DNA of 64,000 bases, taken from the NCBI GenBank assembly GCA_023473795.1, contig JAMCYS010000127.1:1-64000 (forward strand), in the 5' to 3' direction. The position numbers and the translations under genes are program-made. This DNA is from Chloroflexota bacterium. Its GTDB lineage: Bacteria; Chloroflexota; UBA6077; FW602-bin22; JAMCYS01. Positions 58,034 through 63,886 of this stretch are shown here, one piece after another; position 1 is the first letter of the stretch, and each line of letters begins with the position of its first letter. The notes beneath the pieces were generated by a model. The model saw only the letters and a program-made list of their open reading frames with translations, was not told where the DNA came from and ran no database searches.

Positions 58034-58062
58034 TTTACAATGGCACGCCTTGGTAGTATGAT
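58034..58062 (+). promoter_or_regulatory. Promoter upstream of RHS gene
   Basis: TTTACA, 17 nt, TATGAT; overlaps the ORF-track start at 58040, supporting a downstream start. Confidence 0.65.
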
Positions 58063-58135
58063 TGTGCTCAACGTAGCTACGTTCTATGGCAGTGTTGCCA
58101 GGAAGCCAAGCGCATTCGTACGAGGAGGTATGGTG

Positions 58136-61100
58136 ATGGCGAACGGAGCACGCGCTCGCCGGCTGGCACTCAATCTGTTCCTGGTCGTGGCCCTGCTGAT
58201 CAATCTGCTGCCCGGCGTGGCCCTGGGAGCGCCCACTCCCACGCCGACGGCCGCTGCCACGCCCAGCGCGACGGCAAAGGCCAGCCTACCACCGCCGACG
58301 CCCGCACCGAGTCCTTCACGGGCACCCGCTATCGCAACCCCGACGCCCACCGCTACGTTCGCCCCTGCCACTCCTACCGTCGCGCCAACTTCCACGCCAA
58401 CCGTCACCCCGGCTGTGCCCGCCGCCGGTCTCGTGGCCGATGGGGCGGGTGCCAGCCTGACGCTGCCTGGCGAGGGCACCCTGGTCGTGCCATCGGGCGC
58501 ACTCACCGGACGGGCACGCTTTGGCCTGTCGATGGGTCGGTCGCGTAGCGAGGCGGGTCTGGCGCGGCTGCACCCAATCACAGACCCCTTCGAGATCTCG
58601 GCGAGGGCTGAGCCGGCCGGCAAAGCCGTCACCCGTCTCGAGCGGGCGCTCACCCTGCGCTTGAACTTGGACCGTGCCTCGGTGCCCAAGGAGCGCTTGG
58701 CCAAGCCAGAGGCGCTGTTGCGCACCCAGAAGGGCTGGGAGGCCGTTGGCTCGGCCTTCGACAGAGCCACTAGCACCCTCTCGCTGGAGCTCGCTGAGCT
58801 GCCCGCGGTGGTCGTGGTGGTCGACGGCGCCCAGGAAGCTAACCCCGAGGGCTGGGACCCCACTGACCCGGCGGGCGTGCAGCTGGGCGATGGGGGTTGG
58901 GGGGTTGCCTACTCGGATGGGGCCAACGTCCTGTTTAGGCGCAGTCTGCCCAGCCAGGGCCCCGACTACTGGCTAGGCGCCGTGACGATTGAGACGAGCG
59001 CCGACAAGCCGGCTTTGGTTCGCCTGGGTGACACCCTGGTGGCCGTATACCGAAAGGTGTCCGGGACTTACAGACAGGCCTTTGTGCGCACCTCTACCGA
59101 CTACGGTGCCACCTGGTCGGCGCCACAACAATTGACGGGCGAGACGGTCGACGTCTATCAGGTCCAGGCTGTGATCGACGGCGACACAGCCTACCTCTTC
59201 TGGAGCCTGAGCAACTCCTCGCGGCAGCTGTGGTACCGAACCTCGACCGACCTGGTGAACTGGAGCGCCGCCTCGCTGGTAGGCCGAGCCATCGGGTCCA
59301 CCGTCCTCTCCGTGGACCCCTCTTTCGACATCGAGCGTTCGCCCTCGGGCGACTGGTGTCTGGTCTGGCGCGATGTCTCCACGGTGGAGGACTTCCCCGG
59401 CGCGGCCTACAACGCCTCCTACCCGGTGGCCTGGTTCGGCTCCTCGCCCGATCTATCCTCGACGAACTGGGCCAACGTGCACGAGGCCACCTGGCCCTAT
59501 TCCGACGCCGGCTCCGGGGGAATGAGCCTCGCCGTGGCTGGCGGGGGTACGCTCTACCTGGGCTACACCCACGGCTACCGCTGGGATTCCTACGCCTACT
59601 ACCGCACCAGCGGCGACGGCGGGGCTACCTGGTCGGAGCGAACGATCTTTGGCTACGAGCCTAGCCGACCTACGGATGGCTGGCAAGACGTGTGGGCGGG
59701 CAACACTAACCTGGCGCTGGACGACGCGGGGGCGGTGCGCGCCTTCTGGGACATGAGCGCCGGCTCCGTGGGCGGCAGTGATACCTACGGGGCGCAGGTC
59801 TTCTGGAGCGACCTGCCGGGCGGGCCCATCACTGCCGTGCCGGCGGGGGCTGAAGTGCAGAGCCAGCTGGGCAACGTCTGCTGGTCCTGCTACCGGGCCG
59901 ACCCGGTAAGCACGACCACGGGCAACTTCACCCTGCCCGAGACCGATGTCGCCGTGTCGGGCCGCGGCCTGGGTGTGGCCTTCACGCGCACCTACAACTC
60001 CGGGCGGCTGGTCGATGGGCCCTTGGGCTACGGCTGGACCCATGACTACGACACGCGGCTGACGGTGTTTGCAGGCGGCCAAGTAATAATCGTCGACGGC
60101 TCCGGCCGCAACGATCTCTATACCCCAGCTTCGGGCGGCGGCTACACGGCGCCGCCGGGCAGGTTCGTCACGCTGGCGCACAACCAGGACGGCAGCTGGA
60201 CGCTCACCGAGCGTAATCAGGTCAGGCAGACCTTCTCGCCCGCGGGCAATCTCGTCAGTCTGGCCGACCGCAACGGCAACACCGTTTCCCTGGCCTACGA
60301 CGAGAACGGCCGGTTGTCCTCGATCACGGATCCGGCAGGACGGGCCCTCAGCTTCACCTATAACGGCCAGCGCCTCGCCAGCCTCACGGACGCGCTCGGT
60401 CGGTCGGTCGGCTATACTTACAGCCCCGCTGGCGACCTGAGCACGGTCACCGACGTACGGGGCAAGGTCTGGACCTACACCTACGACGATGCCCACCGCC
60501 TCTTGACCAAGGTCGATCCCCACAGCCATACCGTGCTCGCCAACACCTACGGCTCGCTGGGCCGGGTGAAGAACCAGAAGGATGCCAAGAACGTCGAGAC
60601 CGTCTTCAACTACGGCGTCGGCGTCAACTCGGCCGTCGACCCGCGCGGCGACAGCACGACCTACCAGTTTGACACCCTGTATCGCGTGACCAAGATTGTC
60701 GACGCCGATGGCAAAGAGGTTTACCAATACTGGGACACCGCCAACAATCTGACGCGCCTCCGTGACCAGCGCAAGTCCGTCGAGGAGAACACATACTATA
60801 CGTACGACGCCTATGGCAACGTACTCACCCGTACGAACGGCCTTTACAACGTCTGGACCTACACATACAACGCCTTCAACGACGTAACGACCGCGCGGGA
60901 CCCGCTCAACCACGCGACAACCTACGGTTACGACACGCCGGGCAACCTGACGAGCGTCACCAATGCCAAGAACGAGCAGACGACCTTCGGCTACGACGCC
61001 TACGGGCAACTCACCTCGGTCAGCGATGCCCGTAACAAGGTCACGACCTTCGCCTACGACACCTACGGCAACCAGACGACGCTGACCGACCCCTACGACA

Positions 61101-63886
61101 AGATCTGGACCTCGACCTACGACCTGGCCGGGCGCAAGACCGGGGTCAGCGACCCCCTGAGCCACTCTGCCTCGTTCGACTACGACGCCGCGGGTAACCT
61201 GCTGAGCGCGACCGACGGCCGGGACAAGACGACCACCTACGCCTACGACGACGCCGGCAACCGCACCGCCGTCACCGACCCCAACCTGAAGGTGACGACG
61301 TACGCCTACGACGAGAAGAATCGGCTGGTTTCGCTCACCGACGCGGCCAACGGTATCACGACCTACGCGTACGACGCCAACGACAACCTGCTCTCAATCA
61401 CCGACGCCAACAACCACGCCCGAACTTGGACCTATGGCAAGCTCAACCGCGTGCTCAGCGAAACCGACGCCCTGGGCAAGGTCACGACCTACGAATACGA
61501 TGGCGCCGGCAACCGCGCCAAGCGCATAGATCCGATGGGGGCGGTGACCCTCTACGCCTACGATACGATCAGCAGGCTGACCTCGGTCAGCTTCCCCACA
61601 GGCTACATCGTCTACGCCTACAACGCCGCCAACCTGCGCACCTCGCTGACCGACGCCACGGGCGCGACCGCATACGCCTACGACGAGCTCGACCGGCTGA
61701 CCTCCGTGACCCAGCCGGGCAACAGGGTGGTGGGCTACCAGTACGACGCCGCGGGCAACCGCACGCGCCTCGCCTACCCGGACAACAAGGTCGTCGATTA
61801 CGCCTACGACGACGCCAACCGGATGAGCACCGTGACCGACTGGCTCAACCGGGTCACGAGCTACACGTACGATGACGCCGGGCGGCTGGTAACGACCTCC
61901 CTGCCCAACGGCGTGGTCGAGACCCTGGCCTACAACAACGCCAACCAGTTGACGAGCCTAGCCGCCGCCAGGAACGGCACCACTCTCACCAGCTTCGCCT
62001 ACGCTCTCGACGACGCCGGGGTGCGCGCGGCCGTGCAGGACCTTGCCGGCAGCGAGACCTACAACTACGACGACCTGTACCGGCTGACGGGGGCCACCTA
62101 TGCCGACAACGCCACCCAGACCTACAGCTACGACGCCGTGGGCAACCGCTCGGGCCTGAGCGGCGTGACCTACGACGACCAGGGGCAGCCGGTGCCCTTC
62201 GACCACACCTACGCCTATGACGAGGCGGACAGGCTGACGGCGGGGGCGGGGGCGACCTACACCTACGACGATAACGGCAACCAGGCCAGTCGCACGCGGG
62301 GGGGCGCGACCACCTACTACTGCTGGGACGCGCTGAATCGGCTGGCGGAGACCACGGACGCGGCCCCTTGCCCGACGGTGCTGCGAATCAACGCCGGGGT
62401 CGGCACCTACGCCGACACGGCGGGCAACCAGTGGTCGGCGGACTGGGGCTACACGGGCGGCTCCACCCTTACCAGCGCCTCGGCCATCGCCGGCACTGAC
62501 GACGACGCGCTGTATCAGACCGAACGCTACGGCGCCTTCAGCTACGCGCTTCCCATGCCGAACGGCGAGTACACGCTGACGCTGAAGTTCGCCGAACTCT
62601 ACTGCACGAGCGCCAACTGCCGCAAGTTCAACGTGGCAGTAGAGGGGGCCACCGTGCTCCAGGACTTCGACGTCTTCGCGGCGGCTGGGGGGCGGTTCAT
62701 CGCCCACGACCGTACTTTCACCGTCAACGTGAGCGATGGAGTCCTGAACCTTCAGTTCAGCAAAGTGGTGGCCGACGCCACAGTGCAGGGCATCCAGGTC
62801 GTGCGCAACGGCGTGGGCAGCCTGAGCAACACCTACAGCTACCGGGGCGACGGCCTGCGGGGCGGCAAGACGGAGGGCGGCAGCACCACCACCTACACCT
62901 GGGACCTGAACGCGGGCCTGCCGGTGGTGCTGCGGGACGGCGCCAACACCTACGTCTACGGCCTGGGGCTGATCAGCCAGACGGACGATTTGGGGAATCA
63001 GACCTACTTCCTGGGCGACGGGCTGGGCAGCACGCGGGCGCTGACGGATGCCGCGGGCGAGGTGGTGGCTACCTATGACTACGACGTCTTTGGGGCCCCG
63101 CGTGCCGGCACGGGCACGGGGAGCACGGAGTACCGCTTCACCGGCCAGCAGGACGACGCCGCCCTGGGCTACCAGTACCTGCGGGCCAGGTACTACGACC
63201 CGGCCACCGGCAGGTTCATCAGCAGGGACCCGTTCCAGGGGTCCGTCGGCACTCCAGGGAGCCTGCACCGGTACGCATATGGGCTGAACAATCCTTCGAA
63301 CTACGCCGATCCGACCGGCAAATTGGCCTGGGTGGTGGCCGGAGCGCTGATCGGCGGCGCGCTTGGTGCTGGCACCTACGCGGTGACGCACTGGGAGCAG
63401 ATACAACGTGGCGACGTCAACTGGGGTGAGGCCGCTGTCTACGCCGGAGCCGGTGCACTGGCAGGCTCGGGTGTGGGCGCCGTGGCCGAGCTGTTGGGTG
63501 GCTCGGTGGCCGTGGCTAGTGGGTGGGGTGGTGCGGCTCCGGCAGTCCCGCTGGCTGCGTCGAACTGGCGGCAGGCAGAGCAGGCAGCAGGGCAGTTTAT
63601 CAATCAGGCAAAGAACACGCTCCAGTTCCAGAGCCCATCATTGACAGCCAACTATCGCGTGCCGGATTTTGCGGGGTCCCTTGCTAGCGGCCGTCCATAC
63701 ATCGCTGACTGCAAGTATGTCCAGCAATTGACGACCGTAACCGATCAGCTTCGGGACTATCTGGAACTGTCTAGGGGGTCTGGGGGAGAGCTCTACCTGT
63801 TTGTTCGCGCCAGCACTACCATGTCCGACAGTTTCAGTAATTGGGTCTCCAGCAATGGCGTGCAAGTGCTCCCGTTTTTCCGGTAG
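58136..63886 (+). CDS. Secreted RHS/YD-repeat polymorphic toxin-like protein
   Basis: GAGGAGG RBS, signal peptide, Pro/Thr linker, ZU5-like region, Asp-boxes, >20 YD-type repeats, malectin-like insert, terminal core motif YLRARYYDPATGRFISRDPF..YADPTGK, variable tip. Confidence 0.88.
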   Translation: MANGARARRLALNLFLVVALLINLLPGVALGAPTPTPTAAATPSATAKASLPPPTPAPSPSRAPAIATPTPTATFAPATPTVAPTSTPTVTPAVPAAGLVADGAGASLTLPGEGTLVVPSGALTGRARFGLSMGRSRSEAGLARLHPITDPFEISARAEPAGKAVTRLERALTLRLNLDRASVPKERLAKPEALLRTQKGWEAVGSAFDRATSTLSLELAELPAVVVVVDGAQEANPEGWDPTDPAGVQLGDGGWGVAYSDGANVLFRRSLPSQGPDYWLGAVTIETSADKPALVRLGDTLVAVYRKVSGTYRQAFVRTSTDYGATWSAPQQLTGETVDVYQVQAVIDGDTAYLFWSLSNSSRQLWYRTSTDLVNWSAASLVGRAIGSTVLSVDPSFDIERSPSGDWCLVWRDVSTVEDFPGAAYNASYPVAWFGSSPDLSSTNWANVHEATWPYSDAGSGGMSLAVAGGGTLYLGYTHGYRWDSYAYYRTSGDGGATWSERTIFGYEPSRPTDGWQDVWAGNTNLALDDAGAVRAFWDMSAGSVGGSDTYGAQVFWSDLPGGPITAVPAGAEVQSQLGNVCWSCYRADPVSTTTGNFTLPETDVAVSGRGLGVAFTRTYNSGRLVDGPLGYGWTHDYDTRLTVFAGGQVIIVDGSGRNDLYTPASGGGYTAPPGRFVTLAHNQDGSWTLTERNQVRQTFSPAGNLVSLADRNGNTVSLAYDENGRLSSITDPAGRALSFTYNGQRLASLTDALGRSVGYTYSPAGDLSTVTDVRGKVWTYTYDDAHRLLTKVDPHSHTVLANTYGSLGRVKNQKDAKNVETVFNYGVGVNSAVDPRGDSTTYQFDTLYRVTKIVDADGKEVYQYWDTANNLTRLRDQRKSVEENTYYTYDAYGNVLTRTNGLYNVWTYTYNAFNDVTTARDPLNHATTYGYDTPGNLTSVTNAKNEQTTFGYDAYGQLTSVSDARNKVTTFAYDTYGNQTTLTDPYDKIWTSTYDLAGRKTGVSDPLSHSASFDYDAAGNLLSATDGRDKTTTYAYDDAGNRTAVTDPNLKVTTYAYDEKNRLVSLTDAANGITTYAYDANDNLLSITDANNHARTWTYGKLNRVLSETDALGKVTTYEYDGAGNRAKRIDPMGAVTLYAYDTISRLTSVSFPTGYIVYAYNAANLRTSLTDATGATAYAYDELDRLTSVTQPGNRVVGYQYDAAGNRTRLAYPDNKVVDYAYDDANRMSTVTDWLNRVTSYTYDDAGRLVTTSLPNGVVETLAYNNANQLTSLAAARNGTTLTSFAYALDDAGVRAAVQDLAGSETYNYDDLYRLTGATYADNATQTYSYDAVGNRSGLSGVTYDDQGQPVPFDHTYAYDEADRLTAGAGATYTYDDNGNQASRTRGGATTYYCWDALNRLAETTDAAPCPTVLRINAGVGTYADTAGNQWSADWGYTGGSTLTSASAIAGTDDDALYQTERYGAFSYALPMPNGEYTLTLKFAELYCTSANCRKFNVAVEGATVLQDFDVFAAAGGRFIAHDRTFTVNVSDGVLNLQFSKVVADATVQGIQVVRNGVGSLSNTYSYRGDGLRGGKTEGGSTTTYTWDLNAGLPVVLRDGANTYVYGLGLISQTDDLGNQTYFLGDGLGSTRALTDAAGEVVATYDYDVFGAPRAGTGTGSTEYRFTGQQDDAALGYQYLRARYYDPATGRFISRDPFQGSVGTPGSLHRYAYGLNNPSNYADPTGKLAWVVAGALIGGALGAGTYAVTHWEQIQRGDVNWGEAAVYAGAGALAGSGVGAVAELLGGSVAVASGWGGAAPAVPLAASNWRQAEQAAGQFINQAKNTLQFQSPSLTANYRVPDFAGSLASGRPYIADCKYVQQLTTVTDQLRDYLELSRGSGGELYLFVRASTTMSDSFSNWVSSNGVQVLPFFR
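62381..62812 (+). other. Malectin-like domain region inserted within RHS barrel
   Basis: LRINAGVGTYADTAGNQWSADWGYTGG..YALPMPNGEYTLTLKFAELYC..VLNLQFSKVVADATVQGIQVV. Confidence 0.7.
63560..63883 (+). other. C-terminal nuclease-like toxin tip, PD-(D/E)xK type (Tox-REase-7-like)
   Basis: YRVPDFAG..YIADCKYVQQLTTVTDQLRDYLELSRGSGGELYLFVRAST. Confidence 0.65.

What the first reader, a model, noticed from the sequence alone, without database searches (positions are those of the whole stretch)
63560..63886. RHS protein ends in a PD-(D/E)xK-like nuclease tip, a candidate polymorphic toxin
Sequence: after the RHS terminal motif (YDPATGRFISRDP..YADPTGK) and a Gly/Ala-rich hydrophobic stretch, the last ~105 aa carry RVPDF, then IADCKY, then QLRDYLELSRGSGGELYLFVR. 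That spacing fits the PD...DxK core of restriction-endonuclease-fold toxins. Established: RHS proteins (WapA, RhsA) display variable C-terminal nucleases, and Tox-REase-7 has an RxPD..xxVK..QLRDY pattern as I recall it. Inference: this is the effector of a contact-dependent or secreted antagonism system.
Basis: partly seen in the sequence, partly recalled or inferred. Interest (0 to 1): 0.78.

Follow-up and report, generated by a model that had tools for sequence, protein, structure and literature searches.

The report
RHS toxin with nuclease tip, array
An uncultured Chloroflexota bacterium carries a long secreted RHS protein ending in a nuclease toxin of a known family, with its antidote gene and spare toxin-antidote cassettes just beyond the window: a textbook bacterial weapon, found here with a near-perfect recent copy of its own cassette.

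Summary
The 107-residue C-terminal tip (63563-63886) of a 1948-codon RHS ORF matches Pfam PF15649 Tox-REase-7 over its gathering score (32.1 v. 25 bits, E 1.4e-7). It keeps the E, D, (D/E)xK and Q seen in its relatives. The window is cut 114 bp past the stop. The same contig shows what follows: a 213-aa HEAT-repeat gene, the immunity type reported for Tox-REase-7 (PMC3482391); an orphan copy of RHS core end, tip and immunity gene, 1640 bp of it identical; then a second orphan cassette with a different tip (WHH motif) and its own HEAT-like gene. The pairing holds on unrelated DNA: an Aeromicrobium plasmid has a Tox-REase-7 gene 4 bp before a 42%-identical homologue of the HEAT protein, and tip B has similar small HEAT-like neighbours in Priestia and Azospira. 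A signal peptide and no T6SS sheath gene suggest a WapA-like, Sec-exported antibacterial nuclease. Structure prediction was too weak to confirm the fold. New member of a known kind; the cassette duplication is the most interesting part.

The parts
58040..63886 (+). RHS polymorphic toxin gene, 1948 codons as an ORF (probable start 58136)
   Evidence: ORF; RHS_repeat 299 bits, DUF6531, Malectin insert; Rhs_assc_core 71 bits
58136..58231 (+). probable Sec signal peptide MANGARARRLALNLFLVVALLINLLPGVALGA, followed by a Pro/Thr-rich spacer
   Evidence: strongest hydrophobic segment of the protein; AGGAGG 7 nt before ATG 58136; no dedicated predictor was available
63080..63319 (+). RHS associated core domain, last conserved part before the variable tip
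   Evidence: TIGR03696 over cut-off at G000:C62:63080-63319
63323..63562 (+). hydrophobic pre-toxin linker, shared with tips of unrelated sequence
   Evidence: 49-55% identical to the linkers of tip B and of an RHS protein from another family in the same order
63563..63886 (+). Tox-REase-7 nuclease tip (107 aa); probable active-site residues E1847, D1876, D1890, K1892, Q1903 of the ORF numbering
   Evidence: PF15649 32.1 bits; residues aligned with eight relatives; positions

Best explanation
This is a polymorphic RHS toxin of a Chloroflexota bacterium. The long RHS protein is exported through the Sec pathway and displays or releases a C-terminal metal-dependent nuclease (Tox-REase-7). The nuclease enters neighbouring bacteria, probably helped by the conserved hydrophobic linker, and cuts their nucleic acid. 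The HEAT-repeat protein encoded directly downstream, just outside the window, binds the nuclease and protects the producer and its kin. Behind it lies an array of silent spare cassettes: an orphan copy of the same tip and immunity gene, then an orphan cassette with a different tip and immunity gene. Recombination between RHS cores can move a spare tip into the live gene. Shown: RHS and tip family membership, retained active-site residues, recurrence of both toxin/immunity pairs on unrelated DNA, and the identical duplication. Inferred: export, uptake, nuclease activity, neutralisation, direction of cassette movement.
For: PF15649 over cut-off with E, D, DxK and Q kept. The profile of nine relatives has Holliday junction resolvase Hjc, a PD-(D/E)xK enzyme, among its weak PDB matches (E 0.07-0.1). 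HEAT-repeat gene at G000:C62:64095-64736 (HEAT_2 48.9 bits); HEAT immunity with Tox-REase-7 is published (PMC3482391). Aeromicrobium plasmid: PF15649 protein (65.7 bits; 32% identical to the tip, E 4e-9) 4 bp before a 42%-identical HEAT homologue. Tip B with ImmB-like neighbours in Priestia and Azospira. Orphan frames have no start codon before the linker. GC3 falls from 0.865 in the RHS body to 0.66 in the tip and 0.63-0.71 in the immunity genes. RHS-core arrays in other members of the class.
Against: AlphaFold2 model of the tip is weak (mean pLDDT 65.7, two sequences), and Foldseek found no significant PDB match. The first Gly of the published GxxxE motif is Trp here, and the published ExK is DCK. 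No delivery machinery was identified. Nothing was tested for activity.
Confidence: 0.88

Rival explanations
1. The tip is a decayed or non-toxic REase-fold domain, and the locus is an inactive remnant.
For: Orphan copies lack starts. Some Anaerolineae relatives sit in small membrane proteins with no RHS and no obvious immunity gene, so the fold also has other uses.
Against: The live gene is one open frame of 1948 codons with no stop; all likely catalytic residues are kept; the immunity gene is intact and the pair is conserved on a plasmid of another phylum.
Confidence: 0.06
2. The RHS protein is a surface or adhesion protein without antagonistic function, its C terminus being incidental.
For: BNR-like and Malectin domains are common in surface proteins.
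Against: The tip is a nuclease family, is followed by an immunity-type gene, and the locus has spare cassettes with a second toxin/immunity pair.
Confidence: 0.03
3. The duplicated cassette is an artefact of metagenome assembly or a merge of two strains, not a tandem copy in one chromosome.
For: Draft genome of 170 contigs with 4.8% contamination; a 1640-bp exact repeat is hard to assemble from short reads (general knowledge).
Against: The orphan core has alleles found in neither of the other two cores (positions 162, 163 and 200 of L003), so a third core sequence really exists in the sample; the identical stretch begins inside core homology and runs to the start of the next core.
Confidence: 0.25
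4. The toxin is delivered by a type VI or other contractile system rather than the Sec pathway.
For: Tox-REase-7 occurs with T6SS and T5SS elsewhere (PMC3482391).
Against: The genome (96% complete) has no VipB/TssC match; no PAAR domain was found; the N terminus reads as a signal peptide. Contractile injection systems other than T6SS were not searched for.
Confidence: 0.06

Closest known systems
Tox-REase-7 (PF15649) toxins with Imm-HEAT, Zhang et al. 2012, PMC3482391
   Same: Tip family, RHS carrier and HEAT-repeat immunity protein all match the published description.
   Different: The published phylum list for Tox-REase-7 does not name Chloroflexi; here the motif is WxxxE, VxD, DxK, Q rather than GxxxE, IxD, ExK, Q.
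Orphan rhs-CT/rhsI modules of Salmonella and other enterobacteria, Koskiniemi et al. 2014, PMC3967940
   Same: Displaced core-plus-tip fragments without start signals, each with an immunity gene, behind a full-length rhs gene; recombination through core homology proposed.
   Different: Here the first orphan carries the same tip and immunity gene as the live gene, identical over 1640 bp; the host is a Chloroflexota with no T6SS sheath gene.
WapA of Bacillus subtilis and Streptococcus suis (PMC5566331, PMC12704120)
   Same: Sec-exported RHS/YD-repeat protein of bacteria without T6SS, with a variable C-terminal nuclease and an immunity gene; compared from titles, abstracts and general knowledge only.
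   Different: WapA of B. subtilis is a tRNase; substrate here unknown, and the N-terminal domains (BNR-like, Malectin insert) differ.
CDI CdiA proteins with Tox-REase-7 tips in Acinetobacter (PMC6336857) and T6SS effectors in Campylobacter (PMC8285248)
   Same: Same tip family.
   Different: Other carriers and delivery routes; Campylobacter pairs are predicted with ankyrin, not HEAT, immunity proteins.

Membership tests
Tox-REase-7 (PF15649) | HMM score over the curated cut-off of 25 bits | tested here: met
   32.1 bits tip alone, 31.6, 25.9 in the full protein
Tox-REase-7 (PF15649) | Conserved GxxxE, IxD, ExK, Q (PMC3482391) | tested here: met
   E1847, D1876, D1890-x-K1892 and Q1903 align with relatives. 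Met for the catalytic positions; Gly is Trp, and ExK is DxK as also in RHS relative L040 (DSK)
Tox-REase-7 (PF15649) | Restriction-endonuclease fold | tested here: inconclusive
   AF2 model pLDDT 65.7; Foldseek no hit under E 0.001; weak profile match to Hjc, E 0.07
Tox-REase-7 (PF15649) | Nuclease activity and toxicity | not testable with these tools
   needs bench work
RHS polymorphic toxin | RHS repeats, RHS associated core, variable tip after the core | tested here: met
   RHS_repeat 299 bits, TIGR03696 71 bits, a different tip B after the same core, GC3 step at the boundary
RHS polymorphic toxin | Cognate immunity gene directly downstream | tested here: met
   HEAT gene at C62:64095-64736; its homologue is 4 bp behind a Tox-REase-7 gene in Aeromicrobium. 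Neutralisation itself not tested
Orphan rhs-CT/rhsI module | Core fragment plus tip, no start codon in front of the core, own immunity gene, behind a full rhs gene | tested here: met
   L003 1849-3501 and 3612-4786; first possible starts lie after the core
T6SS Rhs effector | PAAR domain or T6SS in the genome | tested here: not met
   no PAAR match in P0001; no VipB/TssC in the genome
WapA-type Sec-exported RHS toxin | N-terminal signal peptide and export without a dedicated injection system | tested here: inconclusive
   signal peptide read by eye; no predictor available, export not testable

The most novel reading that the evidence does not exclude
The identical live and orphan cassettes are a natural snapshot of RHS tip switching in Chloroflexota: an orphan toxin/immunity cassette was copied into the live RHS gene by recombination or gene conversion through the core, keeping the donor copy. 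A conserved hydrophobic linker moves with the different tips.
Probability: 0.45. Interest if true: 0.45.

Novelty: new member of a known kind. Interest (0 to 1): 0.3.

Why it matters
It places a complete Tox-REase-7/HEAT toxin-immunity pair in a poorly studied Chloroflexota lineage. It independently supports the published toxin/immunity association with a cross-phylum pair. It also shows an orphan array in which the live cassette and its spare are identical, as expected soon after a cassette exchange; such exchange was shown experimentally in Salmonella. None of this changes the general picture of polymorphic toxins.

Tried and rejected
Tip in the plasmid collection by tblastn: no match. Tip alone in genome contigs: no relatives. 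Two-sequence alignment: one relative, an Anaerolineae MAG; viral contigs: none. Alignment A3 was too diverse for a degenerate-pattern scan. NCBIfam, PHROGs and PADLOC gave nothing specific for the tip. Linker plus tip folded without an alignment gave a useless model (pLDDT 40). Foldseek of the better tip model: no significant match; the top PDB profile matches are designed proteins and were not counted. I first read the GxxxE motif at GQFIN, which would have lost the Glu; the nine-sequence alignment places it at WRQAE, so the Glu is kept. BLASTP found no match between ImmB and its counterparts, whereas Smith-Waterman against shuffles gave Z 11 and 5; I rely on position next to tip B as well as on that score. 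Simple unequal crossing-over between the live and third cores was considered for the duplication, but the orphan core has private alleles and is not a copy of core 3, so gene conversion or an older array with later exchange fits better; neither is proven.

Full report
Observation. The reported motifs are all in frame in ORF 58040-63886. The gene follows ftsQ/ftsA/ftsZ-like genes in the window (ORFs, named from their sequence), and on the contig it is followed by ilvD-, ilvB-, ilvN-, ilvC- and leuA-like genes (likewise). The window is the first 64,000 bases of a 119,545-base contig in a draft genome of 4.44 Mb. Its phylum is Chloroflexota: a genome labelled 'same phylum' (G240) holds the same locus as the named record of an Anaerolineae MAG.

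Identity of the tip. Pfam PF15649 Tox-REase-7 matches over its gathering score: 32.1 bits for the tip alone, 25.9 for the whole protein, 31.6 in the genome search. Eight relatives from Anaerolineae genomes all match the same family, some weakly. In their alignment P34, D35 and K51 are invariant, and the Glu of helix 1 (E6), the acidic residue of (D/E)xK (D49) and Q62 correspond between members. In ORF numbering these are E1847, D1876, D1890, K1892 and Q1903. The published motif for the family is GxxxE, IxD, ExK, Q (PMC3482391). The window tip has WxxxE, VxD, DxK, Q. A profile of these nine sequences gives weak PDB matches to Holliday junction resolvase Hjc, a PD-(D/E)xK nuclease (E 0.07-0.1). 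The AlphaFold2 model was weak and its fold search returned nothing significant, so the fold is supported by sequence only.

Protein architecture. From the N terminus: a probable signal peptide starting at 58136 behind an AGGAGG, a Pro/Thr-rich spacer, a weak BNR-like match under its cut-off, DUF6531, RHS repeats with a Malectin domain among them, the RHS associated core, a hydrophobic linker, and the tip. There is no PAAR match, and the genome has no VipB/TssC. This is the layout of a Sec-exported, WapA-like RHS protein; export is inferred.

What lies past the window. L003 holds C62:63000-75000. ImmA, a 213-aa HEAT-repeat protein (HEAT_2 48.9 bits), runs from C62:64095 to 64736. A tandem copy follows at an offset of 1764 bp: the end of an RHS core, the same linker and tip, and the same ImmA. 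L003 210-1849 and 1974-3613 are identical (1640 bp), while the core parts before that differ. Then comes a third unit with the same core end, a related linker, a different tip B (AWHHIVEQ motif, no Pfam match) and ImmB, a 121-aa HEAT-like protein. Last is a stray core fragment ending in a stop. The orphan frames have no ATG, GTG or TTG before the linker, so they are probably silent, as described for orphan rhs-CT genes (PMC3967940).

Are these real toxin/immunity pairs? HEAT immunity with Tox-REase-7 was reported from genome comparison (PMC3482391). I tested it independently. The closest plasmid homologue of ImmA (42% identical) is in Aeromicrobium yanjiei. The gene 4 bp upstream of it scores 65.7 bits for PF15649 and is 32% identical to the window tip (E 4e-9). 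For tip B, homologues on plasmids of Priestia megaterium and Azospira are each followed directly by a small HEAT-like protein similar to ImmB (Smith-Waterman Z 11 and 5 against shuffles; BLASTP reported none). Two different tips with two different immunity genes behind one core is the polymorphic-toxin pattern.

Cassette exchange. GC3 falls from 0.865 in the RHS body to 0.66 in the tip and 0.63-0.71 in the immunity genes, while core 3 is again at 0.848. Stalk and cassettes therefore have different histories. In the core, the live gene has private alleles at L003 92, 128 and 209, the first orphan at 162, 163 and 200, and from 210 on live gene and first orphan are identical. This suggests a recent exchange with one edge inside the core. 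I cannot tell gene conversion from duplication with later exchange. An assembly or strain-merge artefact remains possible in a draft genome, although the private alleles show that a third core sequence exists in the sample.

Relatives. Rhs_assc_core is found in 12 of 29 genomes of the class, often several per contig in a row: five in G005:C75, with transposase-like genes between them, two in G019:C56, three in G022:C108. Orphan arrays are thus usual in this class. The tip itself is rare: only one other genome of 400 in the phylum sample had a match at E 0.001, and 11 of 396 in the class of that genome at E 0.01. Among these, RHS relative L040 also has DxK.

Verdict. Observation confirmed, interpretation supported. 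The tip is a new member of the Tox-REase-7/Imm-HEAT polymorphic toxins, carried by an RHS protein, with an orphan array. Its mechanism is known in outline; substrate, delivery and activity are untested here. Interest is modest, and mainly in the duplicated cassette.

Noticed in passing
L003:3612-4786 (G000:C62:66611-67785): Second orphan cassette: tip B with AWHHIVEQ, no Pfam match, and HEAT-like ImmB; the pair recurs on Priestia and Azospira plasmids.
   Followed up: yes
window 63323-63562; L003:3849-4076; G005:C75: Conserved hydrophobic linker with THWxQ and EA motifs between RHS core and unrelated tips, 49-55% identical; possibly a membrane-entry module.
   Followed up: partly
L005/L012, L042, L045, L046: Anaerolineae relatives of the tip lie in roughly 270-300-aa proteins with hydrophobic segments, no RHS, and in several a Cys-rich insert (CxC..CxxC-like); in L005/L012 a tRNA adenosine deaminase-like gene is close by. 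They may not be toxins.
   Followed up: partly
L032 (G005:C75:13000-32000): Long array of RHS core-plus-tip units with transposase-like ORFs inserted, in another family of the same order.
   Followed up: partly
L003:4793-4963: Stray RHS core fragment ending in a stop codon at the far end of the array, probably a relic of an earlier rearrangement.
   Followed up: no
L003:5243-5641: Strong promoter-like site and two terminator-like hairpins with a shared GTCCCT..GCAGG motif in front of an ilvD-like gene; looks like an attenuation leader, no Rfam match.
   Followed up: no
window 62378-62773: A Malectin domain (114 bits) is inserted among the RHS repeats (residues 1447-1578).
   Followed up: no
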